Part shown: piece by piece, positions 3 through 8,782 of the stretch
Numbering within the stretch: position 1 is the stretch's first letter
Layout of the letters: every line of letters starts with the position of its first letter
Assembly (NCBI GenBank): GCA_001880285.1
Contig: CP016269.1
Span: forward strand, 2,862,501 to 2,926,500
Direction of reading: 5' to 3'
DNA from: Flavobacteriaceae bacterium UJ101
GTDB lineage: Bacteria > Bacteroidota > Bacteroidia > Flavobacteriales > UJ101
Length of the DNA: 64,000 nucleotides
Translations under genes and position numbers: made by a program
Notes under the pieces: generated by a model
What the model saw: the letters and a program-made list of their open reading frames with translations, nothing else
Database searches by the model: none
Told to the model about the DNA's origin: nothing

Positions 3-3000
3 CCGGATCCTATTTTATCAGATCAGAATTATATATATGTAGAAGAACCCTTAGAGGCAACGGCAAGTATCACAACAGGGACCCAGAGGTTGCAGAGCAT
101 CCAATATTTTGATGGATTAGGAAGGCCGACGCAAAGTATTGGCATTCAGCAGAGTCCAGCGGGGAAAGATCTAGTGACCCCGATTGTGTATGATGAGTTT
201 GGAAGACCAACCCACGATTACTTACCGTATGAGAGTAGTCAGAATACAGGTGCCTATATAGAGAATACCACAGCAATAACAGGAGTTGAACGTTATTACA
301 GTACGCATTACGACAATGAAACCCATCCCTTTAGCCAGAAGGAATTAGAAGCTTCACCATTGAATCGAGTATTGAAACAGGCGGCACCAGGAAAAGCATG
401 GAATTTAGGGTCAGAACATGAGATTGAGTTTGGGTATGAGACGAACACCACAGATGAAGTGAGACGTTTTGATGCGAAGACGGATGCTAATTTTGTACCG
501 AGTTTAGAGAATAAAGGTTATTATGGAGCGGGTGAATTATACAAGACGGTAACCAGAGATGAGAATCATACCCAGGGCAAAGCGCATACGATAGAGGAGT
601 TTAAAGATAAAGAAGGACGAGTCGTATTAAAACGAACGTATGATGATACAGAGAGTGCATTGGATACGTATTATGTTTATGATATATACGGTAATCTAAG
701 TTATGTCTTACCTCCGAAGATGAAAGGGAGTAAAGAGAACTTATCGGAATTAGGCTATCAATACCAATATGATGGACGAAATCGTTTGGTGGAGAAGCAA
801 CTACCAGGGAAAGATCGGGAGTATATGGTATATGACAAGCAAGACCGATTGGTAGCAACACAAGATGGGAATTTAGGAAAAGATAAAATCTGGATTTTCA
901 CTAAATACGATCAATTTGGAAGGGTATTGTATACAGGGAAATTGACAGGAGGTAGTCGAACAGAAGTTCAAAGTGCCGTAAACGCAAAAGGAAGCAATAA
1001 TGAAGTTCGATCAAATACAGGATTTAAGGAAGATGATCAACTAACGATACCTTATACGAATACGGGAGCATATCCAGAGGCTAAAATTACAACAGAAGTA
1101 TTAATGGTGAATATCTACGATGATTATCCATCTGAGAGTTTAGGAGGAGCAAGTAGTATAGAAGGACAGCCGGTGATAACGGCAAGTAGTGTTCCAAGTA
1201 CGAAAGGATTACAAACGGCTAGTTATGTAAAAGTAGAAGGACAATCGAAATGGATGAAGAGTTATACGTATTACGATACGAAATCGAGACCTGTACGAGT
1301 GTATACAAAGAACTATTTAGGAGGTCATACAGTAGTGGATAGTAAACTAGACTTTAGAGGAAAAACAGAGTACACTAAAACGAGACATAAACGAACGAGT
1401 AGTACAACTACAGAACAAGAAACCAAGACTTGGTATGAATACGATCATGCCGAACGTTTGGTTGGTACAAGGCAACAAGATGCAGGAGGACAAGAAGTGA
1501 CCTTAGCACATAATGTGTATGATGGATTAGGACAATTGCAAGAGAAGCAAGTAGGGAATGGATTACAGAAGGTTGATTATAGGTATAATATACGAGGATG
1601 GCTGACGGATATTAATAATGCGACCACAAATGAGAACCCAGAGAATGATTTGTTTAGCTTTAAGATTCATTATGATAGTATAGAGACTAGTATAGGACAT
1701 GTAAAAGGTTTATATAACGGAAATATTAGTCAGACGCAGTGGAAAACGGCCAATGATAATAAGCTGAGAAGTTACGGATATGAATATGATGCACTAAACC
1801 GAATTAATGTGGCATTGTATGAAGCATCGGGAGTTACACCAAATTCCTATAATGTAAGTAATATAACGTATGATGAGAATGGTAACATTAAGAGTTTAAA
1901 TAGATGGATGCAAGAGGGTGTTTTAATGGATCAGTTGACGTATACATATGATTCAGGAAATCGTTTAATGAAGGTGTTAGATAAGGGTAACGGTAATGGA
2001 TTTAAAGATGATGCTGATATTTTAAATAATAATCAAGATTATTGGTATGATGTAAATGGAAACATGACCCAAGACAAGAACAAAGGGATTACCCATATAA
2101 AGTACAATCATTTAAACTTACCGATTGAAATTGTATTTGCAGGAGGAAATAAAATAGAATATCTTTACGATGCAGCAGGAATGAAGTTGCAGAAGAAGGT
2201 CATTGAAGAAGGAAAAGAGGATGTAGTTACCGACTATTTGGATGGTTATCAGTATGTAGATGGAGTATTAGAATTTTACCCACATGCAGAAGGTTATGTA
2301 AATATGAAGAGTGGTACGCCTGAATACGTATATAATTATACGGATCATTTAGGGAATGTACGAGTGAGTTATGTTAATGAAGATGGAAAAGCAAAGATTG
2401 TAGAGGAATCGAACTATTATCCGTTTGGTTTGAGACATAAGGGTTATAACAACCAATCTAACCCATTGACAGATAAATATAAGTACGGATATTTAGGACA
2501 AGAGAGACAAGATGAGTTAGGACTTAACTGGCATACATATCGTTATCGAAATGCTGATCCAGCATTAGGAAGATTCTTTGGAATTGATCCAGTATCGGAA
2601 GAATATATGTCCATTTCAACATATCAGTTTGCACATAACAATCCTGTTTGGAAGATTGAGATAGAAGGATTAGAAGGTCAAGAGACTAGTGGTAACGATG
2701 TTGTAAATAATGAACCTGTGGGGATAAAAGGAGAATTTGGGATTGGATTTGGAAAAAGAGTTGGGCTTTCAATTAATGTTTTAGGTATTGAATTATCAGG
2801 TGTTTACGATAGAGGAAGTGCTAGGTTTGAAGTGGAATTAGGAGTTAATGAAAATGGAGATATTATAGGTGATGCTAATGCTGTTTATACCGAAGGGTAT
2901 GAATTAAGTACTCCTTTTTATGGAGAAAAGCAAGAAACAAAAATAAAATATAAAGATTATTCATCAGAAAAAGAAGGTAGTTTAACAACAGTAGTTCCTG

Positions 3001-3788
3001 AACAAAATGTTAATGCCGAAAAAGAAAGTGTATCGGGTTATAATGTAGGTAATGTTAATATTGAAAATAAAGTTTCTGAACAAGGAAGCTTTAAAGTAGA
3101 AGAGTATAAATCTACTAGTTCTAAAAATGTAGTACATCATGTAAATACTTCTACAGGTTCATTCAAAGGAAGTGGAAATAAAACAAAATCTCAAAATGGT
3201 AGTATAACATTATTTGGTATAAGTGCAAATGCAGGAATAAGTGTAGATGCAGCAGTTAAAGTTGAAGGAGGGACTAATAACCCTAATCCTTATAGTCAAT
3301 CACCTGGTTATTATGGAAGCAGGTGTTTTATTGAAGGGACAGGTATATTGATGGAGAGTGGAGAACAAAAAGTAATTGAGCAAATAAAAGTTGGAGATGT
3401 TATAAAAACTTATAATTTTAATACAAAAATGATAGAAAATAAAAAGGTATTACATATTGATAATCCTATACATTATCATTTTGTTAAAATGTATTTTTCA
3501 AATAACGTAATAAATGTAAATACAGAAGATCATCCTTATTATGTTAAAGGAAAAGGTTGGGCATCATTTAATCCTCATTTAACTAAATCAAATTATAATT
3601 TAGATGTTAAAAAGATAGAGATTAATGATGATGTTTATTTTTATGATGATAAGGAAGGTAGTTTGATTAATATTAAATTGATTAAACTAGAAAAAATTAA
3701 TAAAAAGTTAAGAACATATAATTTATCTGAAGTGGAAGATAATCACAACTTTTTTGCAAATAAGATTTTGGTGCATAATAAATTTTAA
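3..3788 (+). CDS. RHS repeat protein with C-terminal Hint domain (5' partial)
   Basis: The reading frame is open from the first bases of the window, so the true start lies upstream; the TTG at 90 is only the first in-frame start-like codon. The visible N-terminal part (NYIYVEEP, then IQYFDGLGRP) resembles the conserved start region of Bacteroidota RHS proteins. The middle is filled with YD-type repeats (YDxxGR, YDENGN), and the RHS-associated core (TDHLGNVRVSY, YYPFGL) lies at about 2330-2450. The end, from the Cys codon at 3324 to the stop, looks like a Hint self-processing domain: CFIEGTGIL, a TEDHP block, and a terminal LVHN. RHS proteins are large surface or secreted shells that usually deliver a variable C-terminal toxin. 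Here only two residues follow VHN, so no toxin lies behind the Hint domain. The GC-richer, conserved body gives way to AT-rich DNA after about 2650, as is typical for exchanged tips. Confidence 0.9.
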   Translation, partial: PDPILSDQNYIYVEEPLEATASITTGTQRLQSIQYFDGLGRPTQSIGIQQSPAGKDLVTPIVYDEFGRPTHDYLPYESSQNTGAYIENTTAITGVERYYSTHYDNETHPFSQKELEASPLNRVLKQAAPGKAWNLGSEHEIEFGYETNTTDEVRRFDAKTDANFVPSLENKGYYGAGELYKTVTRDENHTQGKAHTIEEFKDKEGRVVLKRTYDDTESALDTYYVYDIYGNLSYVLPPKMKGSKENLSELGYQYQYDGRNRLVEKQLPGKDREYMVYDKQDRLVATQDGNLGKDKIWIFTKYDQFGRVLYTGKLTGGSRTEVQSAVNAKGSNNEVRSNTGFKEDDQLTIPYTNTGAYPEAKITTEVLMVNIYDDYPSESLGGASSIEGQPVITASSVPSTKGLQTASYVKVEGQSKWMKSYTYYDTKSRPVRVYTKNYLGGHTVVDSKLDFRGKTEYTKTRHKRTSSTTTEQETKTWYEYDHAERLVGTRQQDAGGQEVTLAHNVYDGLGQLQEKQVGNGLQKVDYRYNIRGWLTDINNATTNENPENDLFSFKIHYDSIETSIGHVKGLYNGNISQTQWKTANDNKLRSYGYEYDALNRINVALYEASGVTPNSYNVSNITYDENGNIKSLNRWMQEGVLMDQLTYTYDSGNRLMKVLDKGNGNGFKDDADILNNNQDYWYDVNGNMTQDKNKGITHIKYNHLNLPIEIVFAGGNKIEYLYDAAGMKLQKKVIEEGKEDVVTDYLDGYQYVDGVLEFYPHAEGYVNMKSGTPEYVYNYTDHLGNVRVSYVNEDGKAKIVEESNYYPFGLRHKGYNNQSNPLTDKYKYGYLGQERQDELGLNWHTYRYRNADPALGRFFGIDPVSEEYMSISTYQFAHNNPVWKIEIEGLEGQETSGNDVVNNEPVGIKGEFGIGFGKRVGLSINVLGIELSGVYDRGSARFEVELGVNENGDIIGDANAVYTEGYELSTPFYGEKQETKIKYKDYSSEKEGSLTTVVPEQNVNAEKESVSGYNVGNVNIENKVSEQGSFKVEEYKSTSSKNVVHHVNTSTGSFKGSGNKTKSQNGSITLFGISANAGISVDAAVKVEGGTNNPNPYSQSPGYYGSRCFIEGTGILMESGEQKVIEQIKVGDVIKTYNFNTKMIENKKVLHIDNPIHYHFVKMYFSNNVINVNTEDHPYYVKGKGWASFNPHLTKSNYNLDVKKIEINDDVYFYDDKEGSLINIKLIKLEKINKKLRTYNLSEVEDNHNFFANKILVHNKF
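2151..2452 (+). repeat. RHS core segment duplicated at 4273-4571
   Basis: This part of the main RHS gene (coding IEYLYDAAGMKLQKK through YYPFGL) is nearly identical at DNA level to 4273-4571; one codon is missing in the second copy. The similarity starts abruptly at AAAATAGAAT in both copies and fades after GGTTATAACAA. It marks the homology that allows RHS tips to be swapped by recombination. Confidence 0.9.
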
Positions 3789-3794
3789 TATAAT

Positions 3795-4157
3795 ATGAAT
3801 TTTAAAATTAAAAGAGGATTAAGTTTTGGTATTGATTTAATGATAATAGCCTTGTTGATAATAATTATAGAATTTATAATTGAATTTAATGATGACTATT
3901 TCTATTATATGATGTATGGCTGTTTATTTTTAAAAGATGTTTTATCAAAAAAAGGATCTTTAGGTAAATTAATATTGGGCTTAAAATTAGAAACGAATAA
4001 TAATCAGTATCGTTATTTTCGAATTATTTCAAGGAATTTCTCTCTAGTTTTGTGGCCAATAGAAGCTATTGTTTTTACTATTTATGGTAAAAGGATAGGA
4101 GATTATATATTTAAAACCGATGTGGTATTAGATAATAAAATAAATGATAGCATATAA
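3795..4157 (+). CDS. RDD family small membrane protein
   Basis: 120 residues. Features of the RDD family are visible: an N-terminal basic stretch followed by a hydrophobic segment (about 13-29), a second membrane stretch, the SLGKLILGLKL block in the middle, an R..RN pair, and the closing GKRIGDYIFKTDVV block. RDD proteins are small inner-membrane proteins; some have been proposed to act in transport, but most have no known role. The gene begins 6 bp after the RHS stop codon and is followed by an intrinsic terminator, so it is probably co-transcribed with the RHS gene. That position is where an immunity gene would be expected, but this role is inferred from context only. Base composition is as AT-rich as the RHS tip, which suggests it moves with the tip. 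Confidence 0.8.
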   Translation: MNFKIKRGLSFGIDLMIIALLIIIIEFIIEFNDDYFYYMMYGCLFLKDVLSKKGSLGKLILGLKLETNNNQYRYFRIISRNFSLVLWPIEAIVFTIYGKRIGDYIFKTDVVLDNKINDSI

Positions 4158-4174
4158 ATTGATATAGTTAAAGT

Positions 4175-4211
4175 AAAGCAGTCTATCCGTAAAAAGTTAG
4201 GCTGCTTTTTT
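4175..4211 (+). terminator. Intrinsic terminator after the RHS-RDD unit
   Basis: An 11-bp stem (4175-4185 with 4198-4208, one T-G wobble) has a 12-nt loop and ends in a run of T. It closes the RHS-RDD transcript and separates it from the orphan RHS cassette downstream. Confidence 0.75.
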
Positions 4212-4221
4212 AAATTTTAGT

Positions 4222-5511
4222 GTGATAGTTAAGTTTGGGATAGGGAAAGGCGATAGCCTCCCGTTTGTCAGAAAAATAGAATATCTTTACGATGCAGCGG
4301 GAATGAAGTTGCAGAAGAAGGTCATTGAAGGAAGTAAGACAACAGTAACGGATTATTTGGATGGTTATCAGTATGTAGATGGAGTATTAGAATTTTACCC
4401 ACATGCAGAAGGTTATGTAAATATGAAGAGTGGTAAACCTGAATATGTGTATAATTATACGGATCATTTAGGGAATGTTCGGGTGAGTTATGTAAATGAA
4501 GATGGAAAAGCAAAGATTGTTGAGGAATCAAATTATTATCCCTTTGGTTTAAAACATAATGGTTATAACAAAGTAGTATATCCAATAGCGGAGAAGTATA
4601 AGTATGGTTATAACGGTAAAGAACTTACGGATGAGCTAGGTTATAATATGCTAGAGATGGATATGCGCCAATTTGATCCAGCCATTGCAAGGTGGGTAGT
4701 TCAAGATCCAGTAGTGCATCATAGTATGAGTTCTTATACCGGTTTTGATAATAACCCAGTGTTTTGGGCAGATCCTAGTGGGGCGGATTCGGAAACCATG
4801 CGCTTACAAGGAACTGATGGTAAATGGCATACTTTAAAAGAAGGTGAAGATTATGAAACGGTTTATCAGGCTGAGGATAGTGGGGATAATGATGGCGATT
4901 ACTATGATCAAGATGGAAACTATTTATTTTCTGATGGAATAGATGATGGACGAGTGTATCAATTTAATAGTGATGTAAATGTTTTTAACTTAAATATATT
5001 TAATTATTTAGGTAAAGTGAATAAAGTAAAAATGACTTTTACTGGAAAAGCTAACCCTAAAAAACTGAAAGAAGCTATTGGAGTTTTAAATTTGATACAA
5101 GTATTAAGTAATGGTCAAGAATTTATTCGTATGAGTTTTGAAGCGGTAGGAGGTCCTTGGGGTAATGGATCGCCTGAAAATGGGAAATACTTAGTTCATA
5201 CGTTACTGGATAGAGGTCCGAAAGGATGGTACAATAAAGGGATGACTAAAAAAGGTATTGGCTTTAGTTTAAATGTTGATCCTTTATTTAAAACGGGAAG
5301 ATCTTTACTAAGAATTCATCCAGATGGAGGGAAATATTATGGTACACAAGGTTGTATTGGATTGACATGTGATGTAGGTGGATTAGTGAAATTTAGAGAT
5401 TATACACAAAATATTCTTGCATCTCAAAAAAATATCTCTCTTGAAATAAATATATTAAATAATCCTAATAATAATGGGTATGGAAAAAAAGTTAAGTCAA
5501 ATGGAGAATAG
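4222..5511 (+). CDS. Orphan RHS C-terminal cassette with L,D-transpeptidase-like tip
   Basis: The frame opens with a GTG at 4222, and the first 17 or so residues have no RHS similarity. From 4273 it repeats the RHS core of the upstream gene (YLYDAAGMKLQKK, TDHLGNVRVSY, YYPFGL) and continues with the usual end of the core (GYNGKELTDELG, DPAIARWVVQDPV, WADPSG). The tip of about 230 residues is unique. Near its end it has LLRIHPDGG...GTQGCIGLTCDV, an H...GC[IV]G arrangement like the catalytic His/Cys of L,D-transpeptidase-fold enzymes, including secreted Tlde1-type toxins that attack peptidoglycan precursors. The toxin call is inferred from that motif and from the RHS setting. No promoter was seen directly upstream, so it may be a silent reserve tip. 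Two lipoprotein genes follow with overlap or near-overlap. Confidence 0.75.
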   Translation: MIVKFGIGKGDSLPFVRKIEYLYDAAGMKLQKKVIEGSKTTVTDYLDGYQYVDGVLEFYPHAEGYVNMKSGKPEYVYNYTDHLGNVRVSYVNEDGKAKIVEESNYYPFGLKHNGYNKVVYPIAEKYKYGYNGKELTDELGYNMLEMDMRQFDPAIARWVVQDPVVHHSMSSYTGFDNNPVFWADPSGADSETMRLQGTDGKWHTLKEGEDYETVYQAEDSGDNDGDYYDQDGNYLFSDGIDDGRVYQFNSDVNVFNLNIFNYLGKVNKVKMTFTGKANPKKLKEAIGVLNLIQVLSNGQEFIRMSFEAVGGPWGNGSPENGKYLVHTLLDRGPKGWYNKGMTKKGIGFSLNVDPLFKTGRSLLRIHPDGGKYYGTQGCIGLTCDVGGLVKFRDYTQNILASQKNISLEINILNNPNNNGYGKKVKSNGE

Positions 5512-6103
5512 AATAATTATATTTTGTTTAGTATGTTTATTTGTATCATGTAAAGAGATTTATAAAATAAAAAATGATTTAATAGAAAGTAGATCTCAAA
5601 CAAAAGTTAAAAGAGAAATAACTTCTTTTAAACCTGATATGATAATTAATAATCAAATTACTTTTATGAAGTCTTGTGATTTTTTAGAAAATACAAAAAA
5701 GTATAATGGGAGAATATTTATAAAGAATAAAATGAATACTCAATGTTTGGTTTTAGGAACTAATTATGGAGGAGGGGAAAATGAATTTAAAGAAGCAGAG
5801 ATAGTATATTTTAAAGATTTAGATTTTAAAAAATATTCTGTTGATAAAAAATCTTTAGATTTTTATACTATGGATGTAAAAGAATTTATAACAGAATCTT
5901 TTATACAACTAGGAATGTCAAAACATGAAATTATTAAAAAGAAAGGATTAGATTATGAAGAAGTAAAGAATGGTATTTCTTATGTTTTAAAATATCCTAA
6001 TGCTAAGATTTTGAAAGAATATAATATGCCTTCCTATTGTGCAAATTTTTATTTCAAAGACGGTAAATTAATAGAATATTCTTTTGGATTTGAAACTCCA
6101 TAA
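5501..6103 (+). CDS. Lipoprotein, candidate immunity protein for the RHS tip
   Basis: I choose the ATG at 5501 (MENRIIIF) over one at 5474 because it gives a clean lipoprotein signal: a short start, a hydrophobic core and the lipobox FVSC, with the modified Cys near residue 18. The gene overlaps the end of the RHS cassette by 11 bp, which implies coupled translation. The mature part of about 180 residues is rich in Lys and has no family I recognise; FxDGKLIEYSFGFE near the end is reminiscent of small periplasmic beta-rich proteins. A periplasmic lipid-anchored partner is what would be expected if the upstream tip acts on the cell wall. The immunity role is inferred from position and localisation only. 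Confidence 0.65.
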   Translation: MENRIIIFCLVCLFVSCKEIYKIKNDLIESRSQTKVKREITSFKPDMIINNQITFMKSCDFLENTKKYNGRIFIKNKMNTQCLVLGTNYGGGENEFKEAEIVYFKDLDFKKYSVDKKSLDFYTMDVKEFITESFIQLGMSKHEIIKKKGLDYEEVKNGISYVLKYPNAKILKEYNMPSYCANFYFKDGKLIEYSFGFETP

Positions 6104-6104
6104 A

Positions 6105-6542
6105 ATGAAGTTATTACAATTGTTAACACTATTTATATTGTTAAATAGTTGTTCTAAACAAGGAAAAATAAAAAAAAATCAAGGTTCTTTAATAAAGAAT
6201 GATACTATTATATATTATGATCTTGAAGAAATTAGTTTAGAAGGTACTGAGGTAAAAGTTCTTTATTCTAACGATACTATTAATAAGGCAACTATTAATA
6301 TTTATGGAGAAACTGGTCAAAATGAAATTATTTATATTTTTAATAATGATATTATAAATGTAGAGGAGAAAGTTTACCAATATGAAGAACCGATAAATGT
6401 TTCTTCAGGAAATAAGCCACATTTGAAATCTTATCAAAAATATACTATGAATTATGAAGGAGAAATTGAAAATAATGATGATGAAGAAATAATAGATGTT
6501 TTTGATGTTTTCAGATCTAAAATACCTTTTTATTTAAAATAA
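6105..6542 (+). CDS. Second small lipoprotein behind the RHS cassette
   Basis: The ATG at 6105 begins one base after the previous stop codon and gives MKLLQLLTLFILLNSC, a textbook lipoprotein signal with lipobox LNSC. The earlier in-frame ATG at 6084 lies inside the upstream gene and would spoil the signal. The mature protein of about 125 residues is acidic, with Glu/Asp/Asn-rich stretches (NNDDEEIIDVFDVF). No family is recognised. It may be a second immunity or accessory protein of the cassette; this is inference from the tight spacing. Confidence 0.6.
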   Translation: MKLLQLLTLFILLNSCSKQGKIKKNQGSLIKNDTIIYYDLEEISLEGTEVKVLYSNDTINKATINIYGETGQNEIIYIFNNDIINVEEKVYQYEEPINVSSGNKPHLKSYQKYTMNYEGEIENNDDEEIIDVFDVFRSKIPFYLK

Positions 6543-7920: not shown

Positions 7921-8235
7921 TTGTTAGATGTTTATATTAAAAGTAATAATCAAGACAGTTTAATTAAGGCTTTTTATACCATTGGAGAAGAAAACTTAAC
8001 GGAATATATACCTTTGTTGTTAACAGAAACTCATGATGAAAGAATTTCACATAACGCACTGTTTAAAGGGATTTCAGTGTATCAAAGTAAAATGTTAGCT
8101 TTGGAAAAAATATCTAATTTAAAATCTCCATGTAAGTTAACTTATCAATATGATTCTATTATTGTGAATTTTTATACCAATTGGGCTTTTAATAAAGATA
8201 ATTTCAATAAATTAATAAAAAATGAATTTAACTAA
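7921..8235 (+). CDS. Uncharacterised protein upstream of kptA
   Basis: 104 residues if started at the TTG at 7921, the first usable codon after an in-frame TGA at 7912-7914. No ATG is available before residue 58 or so, so this may be a true TTG start, or the remnant of a longer gene that has lost its beginning. The sequence (LTEYIPLLLTETHDERISHNALFKG) is helical and matches nothing I recognise. Its stop overlaps the kptA start by 14 bp, which argues that it was, or is, translated with kptA. Confidence 0.45.
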   Translation: MLDVYIKSNNQDSLIKAFYTIGEENLTEYIPLLLTETHDERISHNALFKGISVYQSKMLALEKISNLKSPCKLTYQYDSIIVNFYTNWAFNKDNFNKLIKNEFN

Positions 8236-8782
8236 ATTAAGTAAAACCATATCACATGCTTTAAGACATAAACTTGAACTATACAATTTAAAACTTAATA
8301 AAGAAGGTTGGGTTGAGTTGGAACAATTAATTCAATCATTAAAAAAAGCGGATTATAAAGAATATAAAGTGTTGAGTATTGAAGATATAGAAGAAGTAAT
8401 AAAAACTTCTCAAAAGAAGCGATTTGAAATGAAAAATGGACAAATAAGAGCTTTTTATGGACATTCTATAGATCAAAAAATGGTAAAAGAAAGTACTTTA
8501 CCACCTGATATTTTATATCATGGAACGATTAAAGCAAATGAACCGTTGATTCTTGAAGGAGGTTTAAAACCAATGAATCGACAATACGTTCATTTGTCGG
8601 AACATATTGAAGAAGCAGAATTGGTTGCGAAACGTAGAAAAAATAAGGAGACCATAATCTTAACAATTAAAGCTGAAGAGGCCTTTTCAAATGGAATTGC
8701 ATTTTATAAAGAAGGGCAAGGAATATGGTTGGCTGATCAAATCCCAGCAGATTATATTAAAATTATTGACATAAAACAATGA
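8222..8782 (+). CDS. kptA: RNA 2'-phosphotransferase, Tpt1/KptA family
   Basis: 186 residues, normal length for the family. The N-terminal winged-helix part begins SKTISHALRHKLE, matching the conserved S..LS..LRH start. The C-terminal ADP-ribosyltransferase-like part shows LYHGT, then YVHLS, and ILTIKAEEAF and GIWLADQIPADYI near the end. Family members remove a splice-junction 2'-phosphate from RNA using NAD+ and produce ADP-ribose 1'',2''-cyclic phosphate. Bacteria have no such tRNA splicing pathway, so the substrate here is unknown; RNA repair or ADP-ribose capping has been suggested for the family. It overlaps its neighbours on both sides, consistent with a small operon at 7921-9147. Confidence 0.9.
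   Translation: MNLTKLSKTISHALRHKLELYNLKLNKEGWVELEQLIQSLKKADYKEYKVLSIEDIEEVIKTSQKKRFEMKNGQIRAFYGHSIDQKMVKESTLPPDILYHGTIKANEPLILEGGLKPMNRQYVHLSEHIEEAELVAKRRKNKETIILTIKAEEAFSNGIAFYKEGQGIWLADQIPADYIKIIDIKQ

What the first reader, a model, noticed from the sequence alone, without database searches (positions are those of the whole stretch)
4222..6542. Displaced RHS tip with L,D-transpeptidase-like toxin and two lipoprotein partners
The orphan cassette repeats about 300 bp of the upstream RHS core and then carries a unique tip with HPDG...GTQGCIGL, a likely His/Cys active site. Two lipoprotein genes follow in tight coupling. Lipoproteins would protect the periplasm, the place where a cell-wall-active tip works. 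This looks like an older toxin-immunity tip displaced by the present Hint/RDD tip.
Basis: partly seen in the sequence, partly recalled or inferred. Interest (0 to 1): 0.7.

Follow-up and report, generated by a model that had tools for sequence, protein, structure and literature searches.

The report
Displaced cell-wall toxin with lipoprotein antidote
Behind a large toxin-delivery gene this bacterium keeps a spare toxin tip that probably attacks the cell wall, next to the lipoprotein gene that probably protects against it; the arrangement is of a known kind, but the tip and its partner belong to families that carry no annotation so far.

Summary
Behind an RHS gene (Bacteroidota) lies a displaced cassette: 300-350 bp of RHS core, a separate tip with RIHPDG...GTQGCIGL, and two tightly coupled lipoprotein genes. 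Eleven RHS-tip loci carry this tip; His, Asp and GTxGC are invariant, and lipoprotein 1 homologues overlap or abut the tip in all eleven. The tip is fused to full-length RHS in some genomes and displaced in others (one pair identical in 172/172 residues). The window tip matches no Pfam model, but relatives match Tlde1_dom, YkuD and DUF5675 weakly and concordantly, and the domain also sits in phage baseplate proteins, once beside a lysozyme. Best reading: an L,D-transpeptidase-like, peptidoglycan-directed Rhs-CT with a lipoprotein immunity protein. Correction: lipoprotein 2 is not a conserved partner; it is absent from the other tip loci, and in one genome its homologue follows an RHS with an M15/VanY peptidase tip, so it is probably a stray immunity gene. 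The PDB fold search was negative, so the fold claim rests on weak, converging evidence. New member of a known kind.

The parts
90..3788 (+). 3' part of the main RHS gene (DUF6443 + RHS repeats + associated core), ending in a Hint-like domain; the delivery-type gene next to which the cassette sits
   Evidence: Pfam DUF6443 3.3e-43, RHS_repeat 8.4e-8; TIGR01443 intein C-terminal 0.0041; the frame begins upstream of the window
3795..4157 (+). RDD-like small membrane protein, presumed partner of the current Hint tip
   Evidence: weak RDD match 0.19; position
4175..4211 (+). terminator-like hairpin separating the main RHS operon from the displaced cassette
   Evidence: RNA fold z = -3.6 over 4165-4222; similar element at the 3' end of the orphan array at 2.138 Mb, L025:12329-12370
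4234..4276 (+). cassette-junction element repeated at the end of another RHS orphan array
   Evidence: 86-90% identical to L025:12274-12315
4273..4785 (+). RHS-associated core remnant of the orphan (repeat of 2151-2503; 3' half like the 985-kb RHS)
4786..5508 (+). unique tip: variable linker, then L,D-transpeptidase/Tlde1-like catalytic domain (about 5005-5508)
   Evidence: family of 11 RHS tips, one divergent RHS tip and phage domains; invariant H, D, GTxGC
5317..5355 (+). predicted active site: His 5317-5319, Asp 5323-5325, Cys 5353-5355 (HPDG..GTQGC)
   Evidence: H, D and G-T-x-G-C invariant in all 15 aligned sequences
5501..6103 (+). lipoprotein 1, probable cognate immunity protein (lipobox Cys 5549-5551)
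   Evidence: overlaps the tip's stop; homologue adjacent in 11/11 RHS-tip loci; Cys invariant
6105..6542 (+). lipoprotein 2, probable stray immunity gene for another wall-active tip (M15/VanY type)
   Evidence: homologue in G128 directly after an RHS with a Peptidase_M15_4 tip

Best explanation
This is a displaced Rhs-CT/immunity module. The tip is a peptidoglycan-directed cysteine enzyme of the L,D-transpeptidase (YkuD/Tlde1/DUF5675-like) kind that, when carried on a full-length RHS protein, would reach a competitor's periplasm and cut or alter peptide stems with its His/Cys site. The overlapping lipoprotein gene 1 encodes the cognate immunity protein, tethered in the envelope where the toxin acts. 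Here the module lacks the delivery body and sits behind a terminator-like hairpin, so the toxin is probably silent while lipoprotein 1 may still protect. Recombination through the shared core could reload the tip onto an RHS gene. Lipoprotein 2 is a separate immunity gene, probably left from, or collected against, an M15/VanY-type wall-peptidase tip. Shown: module anatomy, family, invariant residues, fused and displaced states, lipoprotein 1 linkage. Inferred: enzyme activity, immunity, silence, target of lipoprotein 2.
For: Repeat and core. Tip fused in G004 (1185-aa frame), G414 (1199), G002 (1652) and L023 (1262), orphan in G000, G114, G128 (two), G149/L022 and G502. G114 orphan and G414 fused tip identical in 172/172 aa with 4 nucleotide differences; tip dN/dS 0.09-0.30 in other pairs. 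Invariant HxD...GTxGC. Pfam on relatives: Tlde1_dom 4 of 15 members (best 3.6e-5), YkuD 2 (3e-4), DUF5675 3 (0.035). Profile-profile scores against a set of Bacteroidota YkuD domains (25.2) and DUF5675 (28.7) exceed all of 100 column-shuffled decoys, with His on His and Cys on Cys. BFVD fold search: the six top hits, probability >=0.98 over most of the domain, include a DUF5675 protein, an endolysin and a tail-lysozyme protein. Phage baseplate OB proteins carry the domain; another copy is fused to Phage_lysozyme, 2.4e-45. Lipoprotein 1 family adjacent in 11/11. M15-tip linkage of lipoprotein 2.
Against: The window tip itself hits no Pfam, NCBIfam (beyond RHS core), PHROG or PDB sequence. Foldseek against the PDB found no L,D-transpeptidase for a model of pLDDT 80, pTM 0.80. 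Two of three YkuD subsets gave no signal above decoys. Lipoprotein 1 family also occurs without a nearby tip in G378, G283 and G041. The M15 linkage of lipoprotein 2 is a single case. No biochemical evidence; the delivery route was not tested.
Confidence: 0.75

Rival explanations
1. Both lipoproteins are partners of this tip: a two-component immunity, or a chaperone/adaptor plus immunity.
For: The two genes are 1 bp apart and in the same direction; both have lipoprotein signals.
Against: None of the other tip loci has a lipoprotein 2 homologue next to the tip; in G128, which has two copies of the tip kind, the homologue sits instead after an M15-tip RHS, about 2 kb from the nearer copy with another cassette between.
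Confidence: 0.12
2. The tip is a peptidoglycan-binding or structural domain without catalysis, its conserved His/Cys serving metal binding or folding.
For: PDB fold search negative; the motif LRIHPDG..GTxGC departs from the classical YkuD motif; a phage baseplate context also allows binding.
Against: H, D and C invariant across RHS tips and phages; Tlde1_dom/YkuD matches in relatives; a mere binder would hardly need an always-adjacent lipoprotein.
Confidence: 0.12
3. Dead remnant: the cassette is decaying DNA after displacement, with no role.
For: No convincing promoter or start signals upstream; terminator-like hairpin before it.
Against: Open frame, intact motif, low dN/dS in the tip family (window vs L022 0.185), intact overlapping lipoprotein; published orphan CDI modules are functional and their immunity genes expressed (PMC3150448).
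Confidence: 0.1

Closest known systems
Orphan rhs-CT/rhsI and cdiA-CT/cdiI modules (PMC3150448; PMC3967940)
   Same: Core fragment + toxin tip + immunity gene behind a full-length delivery gene, mostly lacking initiation signals; same tips fused to full-length genes elsewhere.
   Different: Bacteroidota DUF6443-type RHS; lipoprotein partner; no experiment here.
L,D-peptidase toxin domains of RHS polymorphic toxins (Zhang et al. 2012, PMC3482391)
   Same: RHS-borne L,D-peptidase-type tip with linked immunity gene.
   Different: The window tip is not recognised by YkuD or any other Pfam model; whether it falls within their set could not be checked.
Tlde1 T6SS effectors (PMC9638812)
   Same: His ... 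Cys motif, predicted cell-wall target; relatives of the tip hit Tlde1_dom.
   Different: GTxGC rather than (S/T)HGC; LRIHPDG around the His; carried by RHS rather than stand-alone; the lipoprotein 1 family matched no known family in the searches made here.
Vibrio immunity-gene arrays formed by effector displacement (PMC5361080)
   Same: Immunity genes retained side by side after toxin replacement, as proposed for lipoprotein 2.
   Different: Only two genes here; RHS locus rather than T6SS auxiliary cluster.

Membership tests
Orphan Rhs-CT/immunity module | Truncated RHS core followed by a variable tip, downstream of a full-length RHS gene | tested here: met
Orphan Rhs-CT/immunity module | Same tip fused to full-length RHS elsewhere | tested here: met
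   G004, G414, G002, L023
Orphan Rhs-CT/immunity module | Adjacent gene neutralises the tip | not testable with these tools
   linkage only: 11/11 loci
L,D-transpeptidase / YkuD / Tlde1 | Catalytic His and Cys in ordered motif | tested here: met
   invariant H105, D107, G113-T114-x-G116-C117 of A5
L,D-transpeptidase / YkuD / Tlde1 | Match to YkuD or Tlde1_dom above the curated cut-off | tested here: not met
   window tip no hit; relatives below cut-off (21.7 and 22.2 vs 30.1; 20.1 vs 23.4 bits)
L,D-transpeptidase / YkuD / Tlde1 | L,D-transpeptidase fold | tested here: inconclusive
   PDB search empty; viral library gives DUF5675/endolysin/tail-lysozyme proteins; order His strand - Cys loop - helix - strand agrees
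L,D-transpeptidase / YkuD / Tlde1 | L,D-carboxypeptidase or transpeptidase activity on peptidoglycan | not testable with these tools
   none
Lipoprotein immunity to a periplasmic toxin | Signal sequence with lipobox Cys | tested here: met
   Cys after a short hydrophobic signal in all 14 members; 24 low-confidence residues (a tether) before the fold
Lipoprotein immunity to a periplasmic toxin | Specific protection against the cognate toxin | not testable with these tools
   none

The most novel reading that the evidence does not exclude
The tip founds a distinct branch of the L,D-transpeptidase superfamily (LRIHPDG..GTxGCIG) shared by RHS toxins of Bacteroidota and phage baseplate proteins, with its own lipoprotein immunity family; RHS arrays of these bacteria collect lipoprotein immunity genes against tips with different wall chemistries.
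Probability: 0.4. Interest if true: 0.55.

Novelty: new member of a known kind. Interest (0 to 1): 0.4.

Why it matters
It gives an unannotated tip family and an unannotated lipoprotein family a testable function in the poorly understood RHS systems of Bacteroidota. It supplies a fused/displaced pair with identical tips for studying tip exchange, and it links a bacterial toxin tip to a domain of phage baseplates. It also shows that gene adjacency alone would assign the second lipoprotein wrongly.

Tried and rejected
PDB sequence searches gave only designed beta-trefoils (Symfoil) matching the short stretch LRIxPDGxxxGT, a chance match of a repeated 15-residue motif. PDB Foldseek gave no significant hit for tip or lipoprotein 1 (a 0.035 hit of lipoprotein 1 to an antifungal effector structure is not trusted). 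Ntox23, DUF2141, PP1_inhibitor and similar Pfam hits of single members are weak and not shared consistently. Plasmid search for the tip: none. Bacteroidota promoter pattern: no more than chance. A homologue of the G128 M15 tip in the own genome: none found. PADLOC: none. Two YkuD subsets gave no profile signal.

Full report
What is there. The window's 5' end holds the 3' part of a long RHS gene (DUF6443, RHS repeats, associated core) ending in a Hint-like domain, followed by a small RDD-like gene. After a terminator-like hairpin (4175-4211; fold z = -3.6) comes a 429-codon ORF. Its first 190 or so codons are RHS-associated core (TIGR03696, 1.1e-13), repeating 2151-2503 at 84-94% in DNA. The rest is unique in the genome. 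The likely lipoprotein starts are ATG 5501, overlapping the tip's stop, and ATG 6105, 1 bp after the first lipoprotein's stop; both begin with short lipoprotein signals.

The genome and its RHS genes. The genome (3.07 Mb, one contig) falls in the same order as a contig whose public record is an Owenweeksia MAG (G149:C148 and L022 have the same length and sequence), that is Flavobacteriales. It has six places with this core: long genes at 0.985, 2.133 and 2.864 Mb and orphans at 2.135, 2.137 and 2.867 Mb. The orphan core of the window is 88% identical to that of the 0.985-Mb gene, with nearly the same last 60 residues before the tip, and only 70% to the gene just upstream. So the module was not necessarily displaced in place. 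The junction sequence before it (4175-4276) recurs, with its two parts in swapped order, at the end of the 2.137-Mb orphan array, and a similar hairpin precedes the orphan at 2.135 Mb. This suggests repeated growth of such arrays by recombination (inference).

The tip family. Searches of 398 genomes of the order, 175 of one genus, 396 of the phylum and the GTDB contigs gave eleven distinct RHS-tip loci with the catalytic part, plus a divergent RHS tip elsewhere in the phylum (G756, L038) with a different downstream gene. The tip ends full-length or long RHS frames in G004, G414, G002, L023 and L021 (the last truncated, next to a transposase), and short orphan frames in G000, G114, G128 (two), G149/L022 and G502. 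The G114 orphan and the G414 fused tip are identical over 172 residues, with four nucleotide differences, and the tip is under purifying selection (dN/dS 0.09-0.30 in other pairs, NG86, with dS near saturation in the distant ones). So the tip is an exchangeable module whose protein sequence is maintained. This is what was described for orphan rhs-CT/rhsI modules (PMC3150448).

What the tip is. Neither Pfam, NCBIfam, PHROGs nor PDB sequences recognise the window tip. Relatives are recognised weakly but concordantly: Tlde1_dom in 4 of 15 (best 3.6e-5), YkuD in 2 (3e-4), DUF5675 in 3 (0.035); full-protein scans gave the same, below curated cut-offs. Profile-profile alignment to one set of Bacteroidota YkuD domains and to DUF5675 places a TPxG-like turn, the His and the Cys in register and exceeds all of 100 shuffled decoys; two other YkuD subsets gave nothing. 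The AlphaFold model (pLDDT 80, pTM 0.80) has the order His strand, Cys loop, helix, last strand, as in L,D-transpeptidases (comparison from general knowledge of that fold). Foldseek finds no PDB match. In the viral library the first six hits are full-domain matches at probability 0.98 or more, including a DUF5675 protein, an endolysin and a phage tail lysozyme protein (TM 0.44-0.53). Independently, sequence search found the domain in phage proteins with the baseplate OB domain (Phage_base_V 1.3e-5) and once beside a phage lysozyme (2.4e-45). A wall-directed enzyme is therefore the best reading; the exact reaction is unknown. Tlde1a, the nearest characterised enzyme type, is an L,D-carboxypeptidase and a D-amino-acid-exchanging transpeptidase (PMC9638812).

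The partners. Lipoprotein 1 homologues overlap or abut the end of the tip in all eleven RHS-tip loci and diverge faster than the tip (window vs L022: 29% against 70% identity), as expected for immunity proteins. In the 398-genome sample the family has ten clear loci, seven beside a tip and three (G378, G283, G041) without one in the fetched flank, compatible with orphan immunity genes. Lipoprotein 2 behaves differently. Only two close homologues were found: one alone in G123, and one in G128 that overlaps the end of a full-length RHS gene whose tip is Peptidase_M15_4/VanY (9.9e-14, 1.7e-10), although G128 also carries two copies of the window's tip kind 2-4 kb away. No copy of that M15 tip was detected in the own genome. 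The simplest account is an immunity gene for another wall-active tip, retained or collected here, like the Vibrio immunity arrays (PMC5361080). It rests on one linkage.

Function. Shown: anatomy, family, invariance, module exchange, linkage of lipoprotein 1. Inferred: peptidoglycan cleavage or exchange in the periplasm of competitors, protection by lipoprotein 1, silence of the displaced toxin (no convincing start or promoter), and reloading by recombination. The secretion route of these DUF6443 RHS proteins was not tested.

Verdict. An ordinary kind of locus (orphan Rhs toxin/immunity module; L,D-peptidase tips on RHS were proposed in PMC3482391) with an unannotated tip and immunity family, a phage link, and a corrected role for the second lipoprotein.

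Noticed in passing
L039:3410-4516, L040:2873-4966, L041:1461-3464: Uncultivated phage contigs carry the same LRIHPDG..GTxGC domain, in two cases with a baseplate/VgrG OB domain (Phage_base_V) and in one fused to a phage lysozyme.
   Followed up: partly
L029:13824-17671 (G128): Full-length RHS with an M15/VanY peptidase tip, overlapping a lipoprotein homologous to the window's second lipoprotein.
   Followed up: partly
L022:186-5195: Array of displaced tips: one with a weak murein endopeptidase M74 match (0.0012), one with an SSEGCLNV motif that may be another transpeptidase-like tip, and the window's tip kind; each with its own following gene.
   Followed up: partly
L038:712-2365: Divergent tip of the same kind (YkuD 0.0011) elsewhere in the phylum, followed by a different gene that seems to bear a signal peptide: a possible second immunity family.
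   Followed up: no
window 3330-3788: The main RHS ends in a Hint-like domain at its extreme C-terminus with no toxin domain after it, followed by an RDD-like membrane protein gene.
   Followed up: no
L025:8980-12028 (own genome 2.135-2.138 Mb): Second RHS locus with two displaced tips and their presumed partners, and cassette-junction hairpins like the one at 4175-4211.
   Followed up: partly
L021:1-6122: Contig labelled Candidatus Rokubacteria carries a tip 59% identical to this Flavobacteriales family and a matching lipoprotein; probably a mis-binned contig rather than transfer between phyla.
   Followed up: no
window 8222-8782: Looks from the sequence like an RNA 2'-phosphotransferase (KptA/Tpt1 type); not tested.
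   Followed up: no
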